A stretch of DNA of 64,000 bases from Terriglobia bacterium. Its GTDB lineage: Bacteria > Acidobacteriota > Terriglobia > Terriglobales > Acidobacteriaceae. Under the pieces are notes generated by a model. It had not been told where the DNA came from. It saw nothing but the letters and a program-made list of their open reading frames with translations, and did not search any database. Numbering within the stretch: position 1 is the stretch's first letter; the number at the start of each line of letters is the position of its first letter. Of this stretch, positions 967-12,864 are shown in pieces. A program made the position numbers and the translations under genes. Where the stretch lies: the NCBI GenBank assembly GCA_020072815.1, contig JAIQGE010000009.1, positions 62,001 through 126,000 on the forward strand, in the 5' to 3' direction.

Positions 967-994
967 TTGATACGTAAGTCCAGTTATCAGTACT
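967..994. other. Degenerate dif-like site D
   Basis: Read on the minus strand the site has left arm AGTACTGATAA, spacer CTGGAC and right arm TTACGTATCAA. The left half carries the same TGATAA inner sequence as the three clear sites at 1414, 4333 and 7352. The right arm keeps only TTA at the junction. It overlaps the stop codon of the recombinase fragment (989-987), so it may be a diverged attachment site. Confidence 0.35.
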
Positions 995-1235
995 TCACAT
1001 GAAACGTGGGGCTGTCCTCCTGCCGCGTCTTGCGCCGGTCGCAGAGGCGGGTGGTGGAGACATTGGCGTGGCCCAGCCATTCCTGCACCTTCGCGATGTC
1101 CGCCCCGTTGGCGAGCGCGTTGGTCGCGGCCGTTGCCCGCATGGAATGCACGCATAACCCGTAGACTTCGGCATTGACGCCGGTTTGCCTGGCATACTTG
1201 CTCACGACGTTACGGTACACCGAGCCAGGCTCCAA
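987..1235 (-). pseudogene. Tyrosine recombinase C-terminal fragment, catalytic Tyr replaced by Cys
   Basis: These 82 codons match the last quarter of a phage-type tyrosine recombinase. The HSMRATAATNAL segment supplies His-x2-Arg and LGHANVSTTRL supplies the second His. The nucleophile position, expected as RLYDRR, reads RLCDRR through a TGC codon, so the residue that attacks DNA is missing. The N-terminal core-binding domain and first catalytic Arg are absent, and the frame closes at a TGA about 40 bases upstream of the TTG at 1235. It belongs to the same subfamily as the complete enzyme at 3234-4304. This is a dead remnant. Confidence 0.85.
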
Positions 1236-2014: not shown

Positions 2015-2599
2015 CTATGACCGGGCGAATCTCAGTAGAGGTGCATAGTCGTGATTGTCCGCGGCGCGCAGCGCGTCGATGTATTGCCTGCGAAGGTCGC
2101 CGGCCTGCTGCAGGTTTGCGCTTCCCCACGTGAAGCGCTCACCGCCCAGGCTCATGACCAGCAGGTCCGCGATTAGGCGGGAGTGCCGGCCGTTGCCGTT
2201 CGGGAAGGGGTGAATCTGCACCAGGCGATGATGGAACCGGACGGCAATCTCATCGGGAGGATAGGTCTTATATTGAACCCATGCCTTTGCGTCTTCCAGC
2301 AACTGGCGCACCGCCATCGGTATTTCAAAGTAGTGGATGCCGAGATTTCGCTCCGTTATCCTGAATTTCCCCGCCCAGCGCCATACGTCCCCGAGCATGC
2401 GCGCATGGAGATCCATGATGAACTTTTCGCTGAGCAGATCGCGCCTGCGGCCAAGCGCCCAGTCCTGTCCCCTGGCGATGTTCGCCTGCTCGGCCTCGTT
2501 CAGCTCGGCGCGGTAGGCGATATGCGCCGGAATCAGTTCGGCCCTTTCTTCAGGCGTAAGCGGCGTTGCGTTGTCAGGCTCCTGGAAAAGATCGTCCAT
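2015..2599 (-). CDS. Fic family protein, mobile mystery protein B
   Basis: A 194-residue Fic-domain protein. The Fic motif HPFPNGNGR starts at residue 130 with the catalytic His, and ahead of it is the family helix RWAGKFRITERNLGIHYFEIP. Fic enzymes move AMP or related groups from nucleotides to protein targets in the cytoplasm. This version is the one that recurs next to mobile mystery protein A (TIGR02612/TIGR02613 pair) on mobile elements. Its ATG lies three bases after the stop of the HTH gene and its stop one base before the next gene, forming a tight operon. A toxin or addiction role is inferred from the family and context. The N-terminal segment could hold an inhibitory helix, but no clear S/TxxxE(G/N) motif is visible. 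Confidence 0.9.
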   Translation of the reverse strand: MDDLFQEPDNATPLTPEERAELIPAHIAYRAELNEAEQANIARGQDWALGRRRDLLSEKFIMDLHARMLGDVWRWAGKFRITERNLGIHYFEIPMAVRQLLEDAKAWVQYKTYPPDEIAVRFHHRLVQIHPFPNGNGRHSRLIADLLVMSLGGERFTWGSANLQQAGDLRRQYIDALRAADNHDYAPLLRFARS

Positions 2600-2602
2600 G
2601 GT

Positions 2603-3058
2603 CTATTCCCAGAACCGGCTGGGGCTGGTATCCCGCAGCGCCTCTTCCAGACGCGCCTCTTCCGCCTTCCCCTGTACCTTCTGATCTTCGAGCAGCATGG
2701 AGTGCTCCACCGGCGCTTGGCGGCGGCGGATGAAGTTGCGCGCGCGCGCGCGCACCGTCTCTTCCAGGGGCTTCTTTGGGACAAAGGCGTAAACGAGAGT
2801 GCAGTCAAGCGCATCGGCGACGCGCCGCAGTGTTCCTAACTCGATGCTGCCCTTCGCCTCCGATTGCTCCATCTGGATTACGGACGGTTGTTTCACCCCA
2901 AGACGGCGCGCCAATTGTTCCGCCGTCATGCCGAGCGCCTCGCGGATGGCCCTGATCCATCCCTTCACAGGCGGAGTGTAACCCGCGACCGGGCCGAGAT
3001 CCTTCAGGCGTTCATCAAGATGCGCACGGGACAACGCTGCTGATCGTGATTTTTTCAT
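2603..3058 (-). CDS. Helix-turn-helix regulator, mobile mystery protein A
   Basis: A 151-residue protein with an XRE-type helix-turn-helix at about residues 35-95 (LGMTAEQLARRLGVKQPSVIQMEQSEAKGSIELGTLRRVADALDC). The C-terminal tail is charged (EETVRARARNFIRRRQAPVEHSM). This is the usual partner of the Fic protein encoded 3 bases downstream. It likely represses the operon through the four palindromes at 3056-3170, the first of which covers its own start codon. An antitoxin function by direct binding to Fic is possible but not shown. Confidence 0.88.
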   Translation of the reverse strand: MKKSRSAALSRAHLDERLKDLGPVAGYTPPVKGWIRAIREALGMTAEQLARRLGVKQPSVIQMEQSEAKGSIELGTLRRVADALDCTLVYAFVPKKPLEETVRARARNFIRRRQAPVEHSMLLEDQKVQGKAEEARLEEALRDTSPSRFWE

Positions 3059-3170
3059 AAGTTATGGCCTATTTTTTATTGTTAAATAATAAGCTTTGGC
3101 TTATTATAACGCAACAAAATAATAAGTTGTAGCCTATTTTTTAGGTAATAATAATAGGCTATGGCCTATT
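3056..3170. promoter_or_regulatory. Array of four 18-bp palindromic operators
   Basis: Four related palindromes occur at 3056-3073, 3088-3105, 3121-3138 and 3153-3170. The last two halves are AATAGGC and GCCTATT around TATG; the second site has AATAAGC and GCTTATT around TTTG. Their starts are 32, 33 and 32 bases apart, about three helical turns. The array covers the start codon and the upstream AT-rich promoter region of the HTH-Fic operon. Cooperative binding by the HTH protein on one DNA face is inferred. Confidence 0.8.
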
Positions 3171-3233: not shown

Positions 3234-4304
3234 TCAAATCGGCACCTTGTGCGAGGCGGAATCCCGCACCGACCGCCGCCGCTTATCATAAATCTGCGTC
3301 GTGGTGATGTGCTTGTGGTCGAGGAGGTCCTGGACGGACTCGATGGCGACGCTGGAATCCAGCAGCAGGGTCGCGGTCGTCGCCCGCAGCGAATGCGGCG
3401 AGTAGAGGCACACCTGGGCTTTCTCGCCGGAGGACAGTTCTATTTCCCGCATTGCGCCGGGCAGCCGCTCCAGATAGCTCATCAATATGCGGTACATGCT
3501 GCGCTGGGTCATGCGGCGCGGGGCGAGGGCGTCGCTGTATGCGGAGAGGCGAGGGCGGAAGAGGGGTCCGCTTTCGATGCCGGCAGCCTTGATGTACTCG
3601 GCGATGGACTCCGCCGCGCTGAAATGAATCCCCTTGGTCTTGGCGCGCGCGCCCTTGAGCTGAAAGCGCAGCGTCGCCTCGTCGCCGTCCTGGTGGAAGT
3701 CCGAGACATTGAGTTTGCAGCCGGTTTCGATGCGGGCGCCGGTATAGACATAGAACTTGAGGATGGCGCGATCCCGCAGATCGAGAAGCGAGTCGCCCGT
3801 CACCATGGCCACGAGCTGGCGCGCCCGTGTTTCCGAGAGGGCGCGGGTTTCATCGACCGGGTCGGAGGATTCGCGCGAGATGAACTGCGCATGGGCGGGA
3901 TTGGGGACGGTGATCGGCAGCCGCAGCTCGGCCGCGGCCCCGCTTAAGAACTTGTAAAACGATGACAGCGAGGAAATCCGCCGGTTGATGGTCTTGGGCG
4001 CGCCGCCGTGCTTGCCCATGGCGTCCTTGAAAGCCTGCACATCGAGGATGGAAACGCGCAGCAGCCGCGCGGCATCCTGCGGCCAGGCAAAGCGGCAAAA
4101 CTCGACAAAGGCCATGACATCGCCACGATATGCGCGGCGCGTGTGATCCGATTTGCGCCGGTTGACCCAGGCCTCGAAGATGGCGGCAACGGAATGAAAG
4201 AAGTTTTCGACGCGCCGTTTGATCTCAGGAGTGTCCGCTCCGGCGATCACCGGCGGCAACACCGGAAGATTTTCTGAGCCTGTTACGGTAACCGCATCCT
4301 GCAT
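3234..4304 (-). CDS. Complete tyrosine recombinase (phage-integrase family)
   Basis: A 356-residue enzyme with all catalytic residues: Arg191 (YTGARIETG), His304 and Arg307 (SPHSLRATT), His330/His332 (LLDHKHITTTQ) and nucleophile Tyr339 (QIYDKRR). The N-terminal SAM-like core-binding domain spans about residues 35-135. It should cut and rejoin DNA at short inverted-arm sites through a 3'-phosphotyrosine. The gene starts 29 bases from the dif-like site B (4333-4360), its most likely substrate and possibly its operator. It is transcribed leftward, as are the four preceding cassette genes. Its close relative at 987-1235 is a dead fragment. Confidence 0.92.
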   Translation of the reverse strand: MQDAVTVTGSENLPVLPPVIAGADTPEIKRRVENFFHSVAAIFEAWVNRRKSDHTRRAYRGDVMAFVEFCRFAWPQDAARLLRVSILDVQAFKDAMGKHGGAPKTINRRISSLSSFYKFLSGAAAELRLPITVPNPAHAQFISRESSDPVDETRALSETRARQLVAMVTGDSLLDLRDRAILKFYVYTGARIETGCKLNVSDFHQDGDEATLRFQLKGARAKTKGIHFSAAESIAEYIKAAGIESGPLFRPRLSAYSDALAPRRMTQRSMYRILMSYLERLPGAMREIELSSGEKAQVCLYSPHSLRATTATLLLDSSVAIESVQDLLDHKHITTTQIYDKRRRSVRDSASHKVPI

Positions 4305-4480: not shown

Positions 4481-5374
4481 GTGGCCAACTGGAAAATCAA
4501 CTGCATGGAAAACGAATATCCGGGTTTGTGGCACACATGGTTTAAAGAGCAGATCGTCGCTGTCGGATGGCCCCCGGACGACTATGGTCTTCGGACGCCA
4601 ACAAAAGTGCGGGCGTGGTCGGATGCCCGCAGGTATCTCATGCAGATTGAGCCTGACGACAAGGTTGTAGTCCAGCTCAAGAATTGGCGCGTGGGGCGCA
4701 TCGGCACAGTGCTCAGCAAGCAAATCGAAGATAAAGAGTGGAATCCCAGCGTTCCGCGTCAAGCAGGAGACTCAGGCGAAATGGGCCGCCGAGTACAAGT
4801 AAGGTGGGATTTGACCACGGGTCCCCTTGCCCCAAGCTTCGTAGTAGAACTTCCACCAGAAGCACGGCCTAATCCGCGCATCTGGCGCCCTACGCTGAGC
4901 CAGGTGCCCGATTCTGCATTTCGCGCCATGGAAATTGCCATTAACGAGGACGCCAACTGGGTCAGCCTGATTCCGGGATTTGCCAGCGAGCGGGCGCTAT
5001 CTGAGTACATCAGCGCCTCACCTCACCTGCTCGAAGACGGTCTCGTTCCCTATCCTTCCGAATCTGCCCGCGAGCTGGTTTTTGCCGACCGAACGCGCCT
5101 TGACGTTCTACTGCTTGATCGCGACGGAAACATCGTGATCGTCGAGTGCAAGCAGGGAACGCCATCGCTCCAACACATAGAGCAACTCCGTGGATATATG
5201 CGGAACGCGGAAAAACTCAGGACTGGGTTGAAAATAGGCAAAAACATTCGGGGAATTCTGGTGCATGGAGGAGCACGGAAACTCAGCTCAGAAGTCCGCA
5301 AGGAGAGCAGGCACGCGCCTCACATTGAACTGGTGCAGTTTTCTGTTTCGGTGGGGTTCACTCCGTCACTGTAA
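4481..5374 (+). CDS. NucS/DUF91-like nuclease domain protein
   Basis: A 297-residue protein starting at GTG 4481, chosen because an AAGGAG ribosome site lies 9 bases upstream. The C-terminal third is a NucS-type (DUF91) PD-(D/E)xK nuclease: Asp208 in RTRLDVLLLD, then Glu222-x-Lys224 in IVIVECKQG, preceded by the SERALSEYISASPHLLEDGL helix typical of the family. The N-terminal 130 residues form a separate alpha/beta domain (WHTWFKEQIVAVGW, DKVVVQLKNWRVGRIGTV) that may recognise nucleic acid or a base; it resembles EVE/PUA-like folds only loosely. NucS enzymes cut mismatched or branched DNA. The CHAT protease gene follows 69 bases downstream, and the pair lies between two dif-like sites, so a defence role is inferred. 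Confidence 0.8.
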   Translation: MANWKINCMENEYPGLWHTWFKEQIVAVGWPPDDYGLRTPTKVRAWSDARRYLMQIEPDDKVVVQLKNWRVGRIGTVLSKQIEDKEWNPSVPRQAGDSGEMGRRVQVRWDLTTGPLAPSFVVELPPEARPNPRIWRPTLSQVPDSAFRAMEIAINEDANWVSLIPGFASERALSEYISASPHLLEDGLVPYPSESARELVFADRTRLDVLLLDRDGNIVIVECKQGTPSLQHIEQLRGYMRNAEKLRTGLKIGKNIRGILVHGGARKLSSEVRKESRHAPHIELVQFSVSVGFTPSL

Positions 5375-5443
5375 GGGACCCTGGTTCAAAAAGAAGCAGC
5401 CGCCGACTTGCAGAACCGCCACCTTTTCACTATCGTGACGGCG

Positions 5444-6040
5444 ATGGCGAAACTAAAGGTATTTGTTGCGGAATCCGTGTCCCCTGATGAGTTCTACGAC
5501 CGTCACTGGGAGGGGCACGTGGTGGAAGAAATCGTCCGCCTGCTTAGCGGGAAAACAGCCTACAGAATTGTCATGAACGCAAGTCTGCTTGATAGGGCAA
5601 TCAAGAGCGCGTCAGAAAATGCGTACGACATCTTTCACCTGTCGTGTCATGGCGACGAAAAAGGAATCCAACTGAGCGATAGGACAAATATTTCCTGGGA
5701 GGATCTGGCTGAGTCCTTTCAGGAGGCTGACCAAATGCCAAGAGCTCTCATCCTCTCCAGCTGCGTTGGGGGTCATCGTGGCATTGCGGGGGCCTTTACA
5801 GGGCGGAAGCGGAGGCCCGAAGTGATCTTCGGTGCCGAGGCAAAGGAAGACAAAAATCTTCTCACTTTCCCTGGTGCCTGCATTAGCTGGCCGATCCTTT
5901 ACACCGCACTGGCCACGGGCGGCATGAATCCTAAAGCCTTCAAAGATGCCGTGAAGAAGATGAATCTCATCACGCCGCATCAGTTTGTTTATCGCCGCTG
6001 GGACGAAGAACAGTACCGCCGTTACCCAGGCCGAAACTAG
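5444..6040 (+). CDS. CHAT/caspase-like peptidase
   Basis: A 198-residue protein numbered from ATG 5444; in-frame TTG 5408 and GTG 5435 starts cannot be excluded. It shows a caspase-clan His-Cys pair: His69 in DIFHLSCHG and Cys107 in ALILSSCVGG. Family-like blocks follow (SWEDLAESF, PEVIFGAEAK, SWPILYTALATGG). CHAT peptidases are cytoplasmic cysteine proteases, several of which are effectors in bacterial immunity. It consists almost only of the protease domain, without the large repeat regions of many CHAT proteins. It follows the NucS-like nuclease on the same strand, suggesting joint expression. Which protein senses and which kills is not visible. Confidence 0.8.
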   Translation: MAKLKVFVAESVSPDEFYDRHWEGHVVEEIVRLLSGKTAYRIVMNASLLDRAIKSASENAYDIFHLSCHGDEKGIQLSDRTNISWEDLAESFQEADQMPRALILSSCVGGHRGIAGAFTGRKRRPEVIFGAEAKEDKNLLTFPGACISWPILYTALATGGMNPKAFKDAVKKMNLITPHQFVYRRWDEEQYRRYPGRN

Positions 6041-7609: not shown

Positions 7610-7728
7610 TCTTTTTCCCGCCGCTTCGAAATTCCAGGTGACTTTCTAAACCAGAGGTGTATGGATCGGTGCAATTAAGAAGCGTTAACGCTTCGATGAC
7701 TCAGGGAAACAAAAACACGGGGGCACGT

Positions 7729-10700
7729 ATGAATTTGAAACATCAGGGCCGCGATAGCGGCCGGCCTTATTCCCTTTCACGCTTTGCCCTCTTCGCGGCC
7801 CCCGCGCTGATTGGCGCCGCGCTGCTGATCAACGCCGCGCTTCCAACAGCGGCGCAGTCGCAAATCAACGGGCGGGTGATTGGCGCGCCTCAGGTTTCAG
7901 CGGCGCAGGTTTCCGTATCGCACCCGGCGCAGACGCAACCCTCTAAGCTTCCCCAGGCCCCTGTCCAAGTGGCGATGCCCGCGCCGCCGCCGATTGAGTA
8001 TCTGCCGGGAATGGAAGAGGCGTTGGTGGCGACCGGCCCCGTCGATGAAGGGGAAACCAAGGCGCTGCGCATCGCACTGAAGGAATTCCACGACGCGCCC
8101 TTGAACGCGGGGCCACAGGCCGATTATGCGGATTACGCCCAGCCACTGCTCGCCTTCGTCAGGGCGCATCCGAAATCGAACTGGAATTCGGCGCTGCAGC
8201 TCAACCTGGGGCTGGGGTACTACCATGCGGGCTACTGGAGCCGCGCCTTCGCGTCGTTCGAGAAGGCCTGGGCGCTTGGCCGCAACGCCGACTCCTCCCC
8301 GCAGGCCCGCCTGATGGTGGACCGCGCGGTGGGCGAGCTGGCCAAGATGCACGCCCGCGTTGGACATGACAAGGAACTCGATGCTCTGCTGCGCGAAGTC
8401 GTGGGCAAGCGGCCCATCGGCGGGCCGGGCACCGAGCTGATCCAGGGCGCGCGCGAGGGCCTGTGGGCCTTCCGCAACAACCCCGGCATAGCCTATCTCT
8501 GCGGGCCGAGGGCGCTGAAAAATGTGCTGACCGCACTCAAAGCCCCTGCCAAGCAAATCCAGGTGGCGGAAGAGGCGCGCTCCGGCACGCACGGCTTCTC
8601 GCTCGCCCAACTCGCGGCGCTGGCCGACAAGGCGAAGCTCAAATACACCCTCGTTCAGCGCAAGCCAGGCCAGCCCATTCCGGTGCCCTCCGTCGTCAAC
8701 TGGAGCATCCACCATTACGCCGCCATCGTCGGGAAACAGGGCGATCTCTACCAGGTCATGGACCCCACGTTCGGCGACGCGAGCGGATTACTGCTGACCG
8801 CGCGCGCGATTGACGAAGGAAGCAGCGGGTACTTCCTCGTGCCCGCGAAAGCCATGCGCGCGGGAACCGGCTGGCGCGCGGTGTCCGCCAAGAGCGACGA
8901 GGCGCAGGCGGTTTACGGCATGGGCACGACCTCCAACAGCACGCTGGGCGCATCGGGGGTTCCCAACGGTTGCCCCGTCGTGGCGCAACAGGCCAGCGCG
9001 AATGGCGCTTCCTCTCCTGTTCCGAACCGGACGCCGATGACGCAGCAGCAGGAGAAGCAGCCACTTGGCGGCATGACCGTTTCCGGCTGCACGCCGATGA
9101 TTGTGGGACTGAGCCTCGGCGACACGCCCATCGGCTACAAGCCGCAGAAGGGCGTGCCTTCCATAACGGGCATCAGCTATAACTCACGCGAGGCCGAGCA
9201 GCCCGCGACGCTCGCCTTCGGCAATGTCAGCCCCAAGTGGACGCACAGCTGGATCGGCTGGGTATGGGACGATCCCGGCGTCAACCGCGAGGGCTGGAAC
9301 GTGCGGCGCTACGCCTCCGGCGGCGGCGGCTACGATTACCAGAACAGCTACAACCGCACCACCGGCACCTGGCCCGCCGAGACGACGGACAATTCGCAGC
9401 TCTGGCGCACGCCGGTGCTGGGCGTGGCGACGAACTACGAGCACCGCCTGCCCGACGGCAGCAAGGAGAACTTCACCCTCTCCGACGGCGCGACGACCTG
9501 GCCGCGCAAGCTGTTCCTCACCTCCGTCACCGACGCGCAGGGCAACGTCACGACGCTTAACTACGACGGCACTTTCCGCCTGACCTCGGTGGTGGACGCG
9601 ATGGGAAGAAGCACGACCTTCACCTACGGGCTTGCCGGCTTCCCGCTGCTGGTGACGCAAATCACCGATCCGTTCGGGCGCACGACGCAGCTTACCTACG
9701 ACACGAGCCAGCGGCTTGCCTCGATCACCGACCCGGCGGGCATCACCTCGACCTTCACCTATTCGGCGACCGAGCCCACCTTCGTCAACACGCTCACCAC
9801 GCCCTACGGCACGACGAACTTCTCCGACACGGCCAATTCGCACGACACGCCGGAGACGAACACGCGCAGCCTCACCATCAAGGACCCGCTGGGCTTCACC
9901 GACTACACCTACTTCTACCAGAACCCGGCGATCACGCCCTCCACCGACAATACCTGCATCGTCCCGGTGGGGCTCTCCAGCAATGACGACGGCCTGCTGC
10001 AGTGGCGCAACACCTATCACTGGGACCCGCACGCCTTCGCGCTCGGGGTGACGGTGGACGGCTCGGGCAACCTGCTCACGGAGGACTTCAGCAAGGCGTA
10101 TCTCACGCACTGGTACCACGACCAGATCACCAACTTCACTTCGACCGCCGTGGCGAGCGTCAAGCCGCCCCTGGAGCGGCGCACCTGGTTCAACCATCCT
10201 AACCAGACCACAAACTATAACAGCGGCATACTGGACCGCCCCACCTTCGTCGGCCGCGTGCTGGACGACGGCACGACGCAGCTCACCGGGGCGACGTACA
10301 ACGCGTTCGGCCTGCCGCTCACCTATACCGACCCCATGGGGCGGCAGACGCAGTATACGTATGCCGCGAACAACCAGGATCTGCTCACCGTGAAGCAGCG
10401 CACCGCGCTGCCCTCGACCTTCACGACGATTGCGACACTGGGCTCCTACAACGCGCTGCACGAGCCGCAGACCTACACCGATGCGGCGGGGAAAGTGTGG
10501 AACTTCACCTGGAACGCGGCGGGCCAGCCCGCCACCGTCACCGACCCGAACTCGGGCGTCACCACCCGCAATTACGACGCCTCGGGCAGGCTATCGACCA
10601 TCGTGAACGCGAATTCGCAGACGGTGCTCACGCTGACCTACGACGCCGCCGACCGCATCGCCACGCGCACGGACTCGCAGGGCTATGTCCTTACTTATGC

Positions 10701-12864
10701 GTATGACGCTCTGGACAGGATCACGTCCATCACCTACCCGGACGGCACGGCGGATCTGTACGACTACAACTTCCAGTCCGGGCCGTTCGTCGGCACGCCC
10801 AGCCTGGAGCTGAGGAAGCACACCGACCGGCTCGGACGCGCGACGACCTACGGCTTTGACGCCGACCGGCGGCTCACTTCCGTCACCGAACCCACGAGCG
10901 GCACGGCCACGCGCACGACCTCCTATCACTATTACGAGAACGGGACCCTGAAGGAGATCACGGACGCGAACGGCAACGTCACGCACTGGGACATCGACAT
11001 CGAGTCGCGCCCGGTGGCCAAGACCTATGGGTTCGGCACGTCTTCCGCGCAGACGGAGACCTATACCTACGAGGCGAGCACCTCGCGGCTCAAGGCCGTC
11101 ACCGATACGTTCAACCAGATGAAAAGCTACGCGTACGCGCTCGACGACCGGCCGCTCTCCGTCAGCTATATCGGCGCGTTCGGCACCCCGAACGTCTCCT
11201 TCGCCTGGGACGGCTTCTTTCCGCGCCTCACCTCGATGACCGACGGGCTGGGCACGACGAACTACAGCTATACGGCCATCGGCACCAACGGCGCATTGAA
11301 ACTGGCATCGATAGACGGGCCGTTCGCTAACGACGTGATAGGGCTGACCTACGATGCTTTGGGAAGGATTGCGGGGAGAAACATCACAGGCGGCAACGAG
11401 ACCTTCGGCTATGACGCCATCTCGCGCCTGACCTCCCACGGCACGCCGCTCGGCAGCTTCACCAACACCTACCTTGGGCAAACGGATCAGACGGCATCGC
11501 GCTCCGTCACCAACGGCGCTGTCACCGTATCCACGAACTGGGGTTATGACACCAATGCGAATGACAGGAGGCTGATCTCGATTACGAACAGCGGAGTGAC
11601 GAGAAGCTTCACGCTCGGCTACGGAAGCGGCCCTGTAAATCCCTACGACATCATGTCCGTCACGGATACCGCCGCGACAGGGCATCCGTTTGCAACGCAG
11701 ACGCATGCGTATGGGTATGACCTGATAGATAGGTTATTGACCGCAACGGCGACAACACCGGGCAACAATACGTATGTTTATGATCCCCTCGACAATGCGA
11801 CGACGCTAACGGACAGCACCGGAACGACGAACCCCACCTATAACGGCCTCAACCAGATCGCCACCTGGGGAGCCACCAACTACACCTACGACGTCAAAGG
11901 CAACCTCCTCTCCGACGGCACCCGCTCCTACAAATGGGACATCGAAAACAGGCTCATAGAGATTGATTACGTGGGCAGCACTGCAAAGTCACAGTTTAGC
12001 TACGACGGCATGGGCCGCAGAACGGTTGACGTAGAAACCGCCTCCGGCGGCGGAACGACGACAACGAGATATTTGTGGTGCGGTTCAAGAATCTGTCAGG
12101 TGAGAGACGGAACCGACACGGTGCAATCGCGCATCCTCCCCGAAGGCGAATACAACGCCGTCAGCACGCAAAAAGCCGTCTACATGCCCGATCAGCTCGG
12201 AAGCGTAAGGGATGTGCTGGATGCTACGAGCGGCTCGCTCATCTCCTCCATCGACTACAGCCCCTACGGAGCGCCGGTGCAAACCTCCGGCACCTTCACT
12301 CCCGCCTACCAGTACGCCGGACTCTTCGCACATGCACCAAGCGGATTATTGCTCTCCTTCACCCGCGCCTACGACCCCGTACACCCCCACTGGCTGAACA
12401 GGGATTTGCTTCGAGAGTGGGCTGGACCAAATCTCTATGCCTACTCGTTAGCAAACCCCGTGAACTGGGTAGACGTTCTTGGGCTTACCGTCAAAGAATA
12501 CCAACGACCGATCAATCTTAATGGACCGCTTTCCCCCTTGAATTGGACAGGCATTGATCATCGCTGGATCAAGACGGACAAATATGAAGCTGGCATGGGT
12601 CCAACCGGCGGTGATGTTCCTGGACAAGGGCGAGCAGATTTCCCTCTTGCTCCTGTAAGCACCATTGATCACACAGGGCAATCAAAGAGTCCGGATGCTA
12701 CAGAAGTACCAATTCCTTTTCCTGTGAACGAGGAGTGCGTCAATGCGTTGATCGCGCCGGGACGCCCTCTTGGTTTATTCGTGCCTAGTTCAAATGATTG
12801 TCACACGTTCGATGCTCGTGTGCTCGATCTTTGTCGTGCGAAGTCCTATCCGAATAGTCGCTAG
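7729..12864 (+). CDS. RHS-repeat polymorphic toxin protein with C39-like domain
   Basis: A 1711-residue secreted protein. ATG 7729 is preferred over 7657 because GGGGG lies just upstream and a signal peptide follows (basic start, then LFAAPALIGAALLINAALPTAAQ). The N-terminal part has a helical repeat region and a C39-peptidase-like domain: Cys258 in YLCGPRAL, His328/329 in SIHHYAAIVG, Asp345 in VMDPTFG. The main body is RHS/YD repeats, ending with the standard RHS core (DQLGSVRDVLD, RAYDPVHPHWLNRD, LYAYSLANPVNWVDVLGL). The last about 125 residues are the variable tip with HRWIKTDKYEAGMGP and NDCHTFDARVLDLC, possibly a papain-like amidase but unproven. Codon use becomes less GC-biased after about 11,280, suggesting a mosaic. 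The gene just downstream is the likely immunity gene. Confidence 0.88.
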   Translation: MNLKHQGRDSGRPYSLSRFALFAAPALIGAALLINAALPTAAQSQINGRVIGAPQVSAAQVSVSHPAQTQPSKLPQAPVQVAMPAPPPIEYLPGMEEALVATGPVDEGETKALRIALKEFHDAPLNAGPQADYADYAQPLLAFVRAHPKSNWNSALQLNLGLGYYHAGYWSRAFASFEKAWALGRNADSSPQARLMVDRAVGELAKMHARVGHDKELDALLREVVGKRPIGGPGTELIQGAREGLWAFRNNPGIAYLCGPRALKNVLTALKAPAKQIQVAEEARSGTHGFSLAQLAALADKAKLKYTLVQRKPGQPIPVPSVVNWSIHHYAAIVGKQGDLYQVMDPTFGDASGLLLTARAIDEGSSGYFLVPAKAMRAGTGWRAVSAKSDEAQAVYGMGTTSNSTLGASGVPNGCPVVAQQASANGASSPVPNRTPMTQQQEKQPLGGMTVSGCTPMIVGLSLGDTPIGYKPQKGVPSITGISYNSREAEQPATLAFGNVSPKWTHSWIGWVWDDPGVNREGWNVRRYASGGGGYDYQNSYNRTTGTWPAETTDNSQLWRTPVLGVATNYEHRLPDGSKENFTLSDGATTWPRKLFLTSVTDAQGNVTTLNYDGTFRLTSVVDAMGRSTTFTYGLAGFPLLVTQITDPFGRTTQLTYDTSQRLASITDPAGITSTFTYSATEPTFVNTLTTPYGTTNFSDTANSHDTPETNTRSLTIKDPLGFTDYTYFYQNPAITPSTDNTCIVPVGLSSNDDGLLQWRNTYHWDPHAFALGVTVDGSGNLLTEDFSKAYLTHWYHDQITNFTSTAVASVKPPLERRTWFNHPNQTTNYNSGILDRPTFVGRVLDDGTTQLTGATYNAFGLPLTYTDPMGRQTQYTYAANNQDLLTVKQRTALPSTFTTIATLGSYNALHEPQTYTDAAGKVWNFTWNAAGQPATVTDPNSGVTTRNYDASGRLSTIVNANSQTVLTLTYDAADRIATRTDSQGYVLTYAYDALDRITSITYPDGTADLYDYNFQSGPFVGTPSLELRKHTDRLGRATTYGFDADRRLTSVTEPTSGTATRTTSYHYYENGTLKEITDANGNVTHWDIDIESRPVAKTYGFGTSSAQTETYTYEASTSRLKAVTDTFNQMKSYAYALDDRPLSVSYIGAFGTPNVSFAWDGFFPRLTSMTDGLGTTNYSYTAIGTNGALKLASIDGPFANDVIGLTYDALGRIAGRNITGGNETFGYDAISRLTSHGTPLGSFTNTYLGQTDQTASRSVTNGAVTVSTNWGYDTNANDRRLISITNSGVTRSFTLGYGSGPVNPYDIMSVTDTAATGHPFATQTHAYGYDLIDRLLTATATTPGNNTYVYDPLDNATTLTDSTGTTNPTYNGLNQIATWGATNYTYDVKGNLLSDGTRSYKWDIENRLIEIDYVGSTAKSQFSYDGMGRRTVDVETASGGGTTTTRYLWCGSRICQVRDGTDTVQSRILPEGEYNAVSTQKAVYMPDQLGSVRDVLDATSGSLISSIDYSPYGAPVQTSGTFTPAYQYAGLFAHAPSGLLLSFTRAYDPVHPHWLNRDLLREWAGPNLYAYSLANPVNWVDVLGLTVKEYQRPINLNGPLSPLNWTGIDHRWIKTDKYEAGMGPTGGDVPGQGRADFPLAPVSTIDHTGQSKSPDATEVPIPFPVNEECVNALIAPGRPLGLFVPSSNDCHTFDARVLDLCRAKSYPNSR

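What the first reader, a model, noticed from the sequence alone, without database searches (positions are those of the whole stretch)
3056..3170. Helically phased array of four operators in front of the Fic operon
The palindromes recur at 32, 33 and 32 bases, close to three turns of B-DNA, so a dimeric regulator would bind all four on one face and could multimerise. The first site covers the start codon of the regulator itself.
Basis: partly seen in the sequence, partly recalled or inferred. Interest (0 to 1): 0.55.

Follow-up and report, generated by a model that had tools for sequence, protein, structure and literature searches.

The report
Three-turn operator array controlling Fic pair
Four evenly spaced DNA landing sites in front of a little-studied bacterial gene pair follow a rule that distant bacteria share: the letters of the sites change but their spacing of three DNA turns does not, which suggests that the pair's regulator, probably also the brake on its partner enzyme, lines up on the DNA in a fixed geometry.

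Summary
The array is real. Four 18-bp imperfect palindromes start at 3056, 3088, 3121 and 3153 (spacing 32/33/32); the first contains the start codon of mobile mystery protein A (MMP-A, TIGR02612), which precedes MMP-B (Fic, TIGR02613). It is a family trait. In 97 of 99 distinct MMP-A genes from several phyla a three-site array at 31-34 bp beats five other spacings, against 17 of 99 low-GC flanks and 13 of 99 shuffles. Operator letters diverge between clades and covary best with the MMP-A recognition-helix region, so MMP-A is very probably the binder. Twenty homologues, all from one genus, without the C-terminal motif or a Fic motif downstream show no array. MMP-A carries a conserved [S/T]MxLE motif; in one of two AlphaFold models it lies in register with the inhibitory helix of known Fic proteins. 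I read MMP-A/B as an autorepressed toxin-antitoxin-like pair in which MMP-A is repressor and Fic inhibitor, stacked at three-turn intervals. Binding, stacking and toxicity are untested. MMP-B has Asn where AMPylating Fic enzymes have Asp/Glu (81 of 81).

The parts
3056..3073 (.). operator site 1 (CATAAGTTATGGCCTATT), contains the MMP-A start codon
3088..3105 (.). operator site 2 (AATAAGCTTTGGCTTATT)
3121..3138 (.). operator site 3 (AATAAGTTGTAGCCTATT)
3153..3170 (.). operator site 4 (AATAGGCTATGGCCTATT), best palindrome (8 of 9 pairs)
2603..3058 (-). mobile mystery protein A (MMP-A), HTH protein, 151 aa
   Evidence: TIGR02612 162.5 bits over cut-off 122.6; HTH_3
2861..2923 (-). MMP-A residues 46-66 (HTH); the stretch whose divergence best tracks operator divergence
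2684..2704 (-). MMP-A residues 119-125 (HSMLLED), proposed Fic-inhibitory motif
   Evidence: register on known Fic inhibitory helices in the L029 model; low confidence and out of register in this protein's own model
2015..2599 (-). mobile mystery protein B (MMP-B), Fic protein, 194 aa
   Evidence: TIGR02613 271.1 bits over cut-off 124.4; Fic
2177..2212 (-). Fic loop HPFPNGNGRHSR, Asn where AMPylating Fic proteins have Asp/Glu
2597..2605 (-). MMP-A stop, one codon, MMP-B start (TAG ACC ATG): same frame, tightly coupled

Best explanation
The four sites are the autoregulatory operators of MMP-A. An MMP-A dimer reads one 18-bp palindrome with its HTH domain. Three or four dimers sit 32-33 bp (three turns) apart over the promoter region and the start of the gene, and so shut off the A-B operon. 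MMP-A is at the same time the antitoxin-like partner: its C-terminal motif H[S/T]MxLE enters the MMP-B active site like the inhibitory helix of class I Fic antitoxins. The strict three-turn ruler most likely reflects contacts between neighbouring A dimers or A-B complexes, possibly with MMP-B bridging them, which would make repression sensitive to the A:B ratio. Shown by computation: the array, its conservation, covariation with the HTH region, gene order, motif conservation. Inferred: dimer, binding, repression, inhibition of MMP-B, bridging and toxicity.
For: Array in the window. Family-wide spacing: pairs of similar palindromes above a strict threshold (42 of 99 loci have one) lie only at lags 30-34, 63-66 and 96-97, null near zero; best three-site window is 31-34 in 97 of 99 loci against 17 of 99 flanks and 13 of 99 shuffles, and 97 of 99 score above every control. 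Within the 31-35 allowed when arrays were called, spacings are 31:2, 32:59, 33:147, 34:3, mean 32.7, sd 0.5. Operator-HTH covariation: partial Mantel r 0.54, 0 of 999 permutations; the ten best of 137 twelve-residue blocks all lie in residues 46-66 (92 loci). The four sites are the best matches in the own genome. Twenty homologues lacking motif and downstream Fic motif lack the array. MMP-B found in 93 of 99 loci by tblastn; A stop and B start overlap by 4 bases in 61 of 85. Motif residue is S or T in 99 of 99 proteins whose selection also allowed A or G there. In the L029 model the first aligned pairs put S120/E124 on S31/E35 of C. difficile Fic (3 of 3 rows), E124 on E274 of C. elegans Fic-1 (2 of 2), E73 of SoFic (1 of 1) and E234 of FICD (7 of 14 rows exactly, 5 more off by one) (residue numbers from entry titles, SoFic, FICD from PMC6408439).
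Against: No binding or repression data. The model of the window's own A-B read-through has the motif at pLDDT below 50 and, by the first aligned pair, seven residues out of register. Only first and last aligned pairs are reported, so register assumes an ungapped helix; AlphaFold may have copied the layout of class II Fic proteins because A and B were given as one chain. The residue after the motif Glu is mostly D or A (47 and 36 of 99), not G/N; S/T becomes N or H in 6 of 18 further loci. MMP-B itself has [S/T]xxxE, followed by L in those I looked at, near its N-terminus in 44 of 81, not in the window's, so a motif as loose as that of MMP-A is not unique to MMP-A. Two of 99 loci (L044, L060) do not exceed the control maximum. 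The 20 array-less homologues come from one genus. Promoter matches in the window are weak. The permutation test corrects for relatedness only through the rest of the protein.
Confidence: 0.7

Rival explanations
1. Same operators, but each A dimer binds independently; the spacing is held only by promoter and start-codon geometry.
For: Candidate promoters place the -10 in or beside a site in many loci, e.g. TTGACA-18-TATGAT with the -10 at the centre of the middle site in L003 and L034; the last site reaches within 8 bases of the start codon in 68 of 99 loci.
Against: All successive pairs have the same 32/33 distribution while the last site starts anywhere from -13 to -85 relative to the start codon; candidate -10 offsets to the sites are scattered (+1, +8, -3, -6, -9 the commonest).
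Confidence: 0.25
2. The palindromes are binding or crossover sites of the tyrosine recombinase encoded next door (3234-4304).
For: The array lies between the recombinase stop and MMP-A; tyrosine recombinases use short inverted repeats (general knowledge).
Against: Arrays lie upstream of MMP-A in 97 of 99 loci, but tblastn finds a relative of this recombinase in 0 of the 98 other loci, although 91 of 99 hold at least 1200 upstream bases; operator letters covary with the MMP-A HTH.
Confidence: 0.02
3. Chance or AT-richness: an AT-rich intergenic stretch produces repeat-like palindromes.
For: The stretch is 26% G+C.
Against: Shuffles and low-GC flanks do not reproduce it.
Confidence: 0.01
4. MMP-A is only the repressor; MMP-B is not inhibited by it, and the C-terminal motif serves dimerisation or another task.
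For: The window's own model leaves the motif disordered and out of register; the G/N position is not kept; 44 of 81 MMP-B have an N-terminal [S/T]xxxE of their own; no VbhA-type Pfam match listed for 30 members and no significant PDB sequence match for one C-terminal peptide.
Against: Register match on four Fic proteins in the L029 model; the 20 homologues without a downstream Fic motif also lack the A motif.
Confidence: 0.3

Closest known systems
E. coli hipBA (HipB, HTH antitoxin-repressor with an operator array)
   Same: Small HTH protein encoded first, 18-bp palindromic operators, four sites in front of the operon, partner gene overlapping downstream (the operator consensus TATCCN8GGATA was recalled and then found four times).
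   Different: Spacings in K-12 are 28/39/28, not uniform; HipA is a kinase, not Fic; HipB binds far from the HipA active site (PMC4803016, passage), whereas MMP-A is proposed to enter that of MMP-B.
Legionella HipBST operators (PMC10653801, passages read)
   Same: Three evenly spaced 18-nt operators bound by an HTH antitoxin.
   Different: 53-bp gaps; conservation reported across 28 species of one genus; different toxin.
Class I FicTA pairs: VbhTA, EcFicTA (PMC3667792, PMC5033356, passages read)
   Same: Small upstream gene supplies an [S/T]xxxE helix end to a Fic protein; gene order antitoxin-toxin; the L029 MMP-B model matches VbhT with Z 16.4-16.7, rmsd 3.0-3.2 over 171-173 residues.
   Different: MMP-A adds an HTH domain and an operator array; its motif mostly lacks the [G/N]; MMP-B has Asn in place of the [D/E] of HPFx[D/E]GN[G/K]R.
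Phd-Doc (PMC13034048, abstract; PMC2686095, passages)
   Same: Fic-fold toxin whose antitoxin also represses the operon; cooperative dual-operator recognition is stated for the E. coli version.
   Different: Phd is not an Xre-type HTH protein (recalled); one or two operators, not three or four.

Membership tests
mobile mystery protein A (TIGR02612) | score over the curated cut-off | tested here: met
   162.5 against 122.6 bits
mobile mystery protein B (TIGR02613) | score over the curated cut-off | tested here: met
   271.1 against 124.4 bits
class I FicTA | Fic protein without its own inhibitory motif, small upstream partner gene | tested here: inconclusive
   upstream partner present; the full [S/T]xxxE[G/N] is in 12 of 81 MMP-B, in no column more than 6 times, but [S/T]xxxE without G/N is in one N-terminal column of 44 of 81
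class I FicTA | [S/T]xxxE[G/N] in the partner | tested here: not met
   S and E present, but D after E in the window; over 99 proteins D 47, A 36, N 10, G 3, others 3
AMPylating Fic enzymes | HPFx[D/E]GN[G/K]R | tested here: not met
   Asn at the D/E position in 81 of 81 full-length MMP-B
type II toxin-antitoxin system | antitoxin-repressor binds its own promoter | tested here: inconclusive
   operators and covariation found; no binding data
type II toxin-antitoxin system | partner is toxic and neutralised by direct contact | not testable with these tools
   needs expression in a laboratory strain
hipBA-type operator array | 28-bp operator pairs with TATCCN8GGATA | tested here: not met
   uniform 32/33 spacing and other letters

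The most novel reading that the evidence does not exclude
The MMP-A/MMP-B complex is a DNA-templated, modular repressor chain: MMP-B held by the C-terminal helix of one A dimer bridges to the next, and this bridge is a ruler that has kept 32-33 bp through divergence across phyla while operator and recognition helix drifted together. The number of occupied steps (three or four) would read the A:B ratio. MMP-B, with Asn in the catalytic loop, would be a Fic enzyme with a reaction other than canonical AMPylation.
Probability: 0.3. Interest if true: 0.75.

Novelty: new variant of a known kind. Interest (0 to 1): 0.6.

Why it matters
'Mobile mystery' genes sit on many plasmids (239 plasmid records with an MMP-A match), yet in the held library the phrase occurs in 4 papers, once each; I read the passage in one, which gives no function study. 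The array offers a concrete, testable regulator-operator system, a large natural series of co-drifting HTH/operator pairs at fixed geometry, and a lead to MMP-A as a Fic inhibitor. If a protein bridge sets the ruler, it is an unusually clean case of spacing conserved over sequence.

Tried and rejected
Recombinase sites: rejected. Chance: rejected. A wider regulon: no other convincing site in the own genome. PDB sequence search with the MMP-A profile gave only weak matches, best E 3.6e-4 to a multiprotein bridging factor. One C-terminal peptide found nothing significant in the PDB. Pfam at loose thresholds listed no VbhA-type match in 30 members; one of the 30 hit YhfG (the EcFicA family by PMC5033356) at E 0.096; I scanned ten members one by one, found no YhfG match among them, and so did not locate it. 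The first mixed A/B alignment (A2) misaligned most MMP-B rows and was dropped; A3 and A4 were checked and folded. Promoter scans were not decisive. A paper search on operator spacing and bridging listed one unrelated paper.

Rows dropped before counts: of 118 loci, L002 (a sub-cut-off match, not counted as MMP-A) and ten others failed my protein pattern, L091 had no start codon by my rule, and seven were duplicates, leaving 99; the ten and L091 were tested apart, 11 of 11 (for L102 and L091 the start used was not a start codon). My pattern required H[STAG]MxLE, and one of the two search patterns contained VEH[ST]M[AL]LE, so motif counts are biased towards the motif; the array was not used in choosing loci. 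The covariation test used 92 of the 99 loci, those with array score at least 90 and a protein of 140-175 residues. The 99 loci are not phylogenetically independent. Of 36 listed sub-cut-off homologues between about 59 and 87 bits I fetched 20.

Full report
Observation. Four related 18-bp imperfect palindromes start at 3056, 3088, 3121 and 3153 on the + strand, spaced 32, 33 and 32 bases. Chance does not give them: in 500 dinucleotide shuffles of the stretch at most two related copies appear, and in the own genome (5.29 Mb) the matches with at most one mismatch are these four plus one elsewhere. The first site contains the start codon of the gene at 2603-3058 (-). That gene scores as mobile mystery protein A (TIGR02612); the next, 2015-2599 (-), as mobile mystery protein B, a Fic protein (TIGR02613). 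The two are in the same frame, separated by a stop and one codon. The nearest of 29 relatives first aligned, 87% identical (L004), lies in a genome of the same genus; a contig of the same length is held as L032, titled Terriglobia, so the window is probably from an acidobacterium (inference).

Is the spacing a family trait? I collected 118 loci: own genome, order and phylum relatives and 80 named contigs, and kept 99 distinct MMP-A genes. Record titles name, among others, Acidobacteria, Desulfuromonadales and Desulfobulbaceae, alpha- and gammaproteobacteria, Nitrospira, Calditrichia, Fibrobacteres and Cyanobacteria. With no assumption on letters, pairs of similar palindromes above a strict threshold occur in 42 of 99 loci, at lags 30-34 (45 pairs, 42 of them at 32-33), 63-66 (20) and 96-97 (2) and at no other lag listed from 16 to 109; the shuffled expectation is 0.2 or less at every lag. 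Scanning three-site chains over spacings 20-61, the windows 31-33 and 32-34 are best, ties included, in 96 and 97 of 99 loci; windows of about two turns are best in at most one locus each, of four turns in none. Against controls, 31-34 beats five other windows in 97 of 99 MMP-A upstreams, 17 of 99 lowest-GC flanks and 13 of 99 shuffles; the two others are L022 (tie) and L060. 97 of 99 exceed the highest control score of 84; L044 and L060 do not. Eleven loci that my protein pattern had missed gave 11 of 11, L079 by one point. Seven named plasmid loci (Rhodovastum, Bradyrhizobium, Rhizobium, Euzebya, Shewanella, Bosea, Megaera) gave 7 of 7. Called arrays have three sites in 86 loci and four in 13. 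Within the 31-35 that I allowed, spacings are 31 (2), 32 (59), 33 (147), 34 (3); mean 32.7, sd 0.5, three times 10.9 bp.

Who binds? The operator letters differ by clade (half-sites such as AATAGGC, GACAATNT, GTTCANTT, AATAAC, ATTAGG, TATCAC and GATGCT, by eye). In 92 loci the operator distance correlates with the distance of residues 54-65 of MMP-A after removal of the rest of the protein (partial Mantel r 0.54, 0 of 999 permutations; the rest given this segment, 0.20); of 137 twelve-residue blocks, the ten best all lie within residues 46-66, in the HTH. This is what direct readout by the MMP-A HTH predicts. The array does not travel with the adjacent recombinase, which has a relative in 0 of the 98 other loci.

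What else is MMP-A? In 30 aligned members the invariant columns outside the HTH include V-x-H-x-M-x-L-E-x-Q near the C-terminus. Among 99 proteins the position after H is S in 59 and T in 40; the residue after E is D 47, A 36, N 10, G 3 and others 3. In 18 further loci N or H stands there in six (L079, L080, L084, L095, L098, L126), while M-x-[L/I]-E is kept in all 18. Class I Fic antitoxins inhibit through [S/T]xxxE[G/N]; in EcFicA it lies at the C-terminal end of a helix (PMC5033356 and PMC3667792, passages). I folded two A-B read-throughs. In the window's own (mean pLDDT 79.0, pTM 0.57) the motif is at pLDDT below 50 and, by the first aligned pair, seven residues out of register with FICD. 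In L029 (pLDDT 79.2, pTM 0.65; blocks around the motif at 62-73) helix 98-122 runs into the motif, and the first aligned pairs put S120/E124 on S31/E35 of C. difficile Fic (3 of 3 rows), E124 on E274 of C. elegans Fic-1 (2 of 2), E73 of SoFic (1 of 1) and E234 of FICD (7 of 14 rows exactly, 5 off by one, 2 by more) (E234 from PMC6408439). Five further rows whose alignment starts before residue 103 (3cuc, 4rgl, 7xux, 7cb8, 8cil) I could not judge, not knowing their inhibitory residue. The two models disagree, the confidence there is moderate, and the one-chain layout may favour a class II-like pose. A second caution: 44 of 81 MMP-B proteins have [S/T]xxxE, without G/N, in one N-terminal column, though not the window's; the full [S/T]xxxE[G/N] is in 12 of 81 and in no column more than six times. 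I treat inhibition by MMP-A as likely, not shown.

A discriminating control. In order relatives, some MMP-A-like proteins match mainly the first 100 or so residues of the profile. I took 20 of the 36 listed between about 59 and 87 bits; all 20 are from genomes of one genus. None has the motif, none a Fic motif in the up to 1.5 kb held downstream, and none an array: 31-34 is best in 5 of 20 (one a tie), highest score 77, below the control maximum of 84. So the array goes with the motif and the Fic partner, as expected if A-B complexes set the ruler, but one genus may represent a single loss.

Mechanism. MMP-A would repress its own operon from three or four phased sites; the last site reaches within 8 bases of the start codon in 68 of 99 loci and ends on it in 19. 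Candidate promoters overlap the sites, but without one fixed offset, and the window's own promoter matches are weak, so promoter geometry alone does not explain the ruler well. The constancy (sd 0.5 bp, always three turns) suggests protein contacts rather than mere same-face preference; bridging by MMP-B is my most novel reading (probability 0.3). E. coli hipBA has four operators at 28/39/28 and Legionella HipBST three with 53-bp gaps (PMC10653801, passages), so operator arrays in toxin-antitoxin promoters are known; a uniform 32-33-bp ruler held across phyla is what seems new. The listings (one search showed 12 of 14, 10 of 255, 12 of 24) named no paper on it; subscription journals are mostly not held.

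MMP-B chemistry. All 81 full-length MMP-B have Asn where AMPylating Fic enzymes have Asp/Glu; mutating that acid abolished deAMPylation in an Enterococcus Fic (PMC6408439, passage). MMP-B may therefore not be a canonical AMPylator, and I do not file the pair as a FicTA member, only as probably working like one.

Noticed in passing
2015-2599 (-) and 81 MMP-B relatives: Fic loop of the type HPFxNGNGRHxR (P and F vary in some) with Asn in place of the metal-binding Asp/Glu in 81 of 81; MMP-B also hits the PADLOC defence candidate PDC-S04 (6e-24).
   Followed up: partly
987-1235 (-): C-terminal fragment of a tyrosine recombinase (PF00589); with the complete recombinase at 3234-4304 it may mark the ends of an island that holds the A-B pair and a DUF7689 gene (1465-2013).
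   Followed up: no
4481-6040 (+): NucS C-terminal domain protein followed by a protein with a CHAT match below the curated cut-off.
   Followed up: no
7657-12864 (+): 1735-aa open frame that by eye looks like an RHS/YD-repeat protein with a peptidase-like N-terminal part; not searched against any library.
   Followed up: no
L078: MMP-A and the first part of MMP-B lie in one 298-aa open frame that leaves the Fic frame near the Fic loop; natural fusion or assembly error.
   Followed up: no
G190, G274; L129-L148: Up to eight MMP-A-like matches per genome in one genus; the 20 that I fetched have neither motif nor downstream Fic motif: a multiplied sub-family of unknown role.
   Followed up: partly
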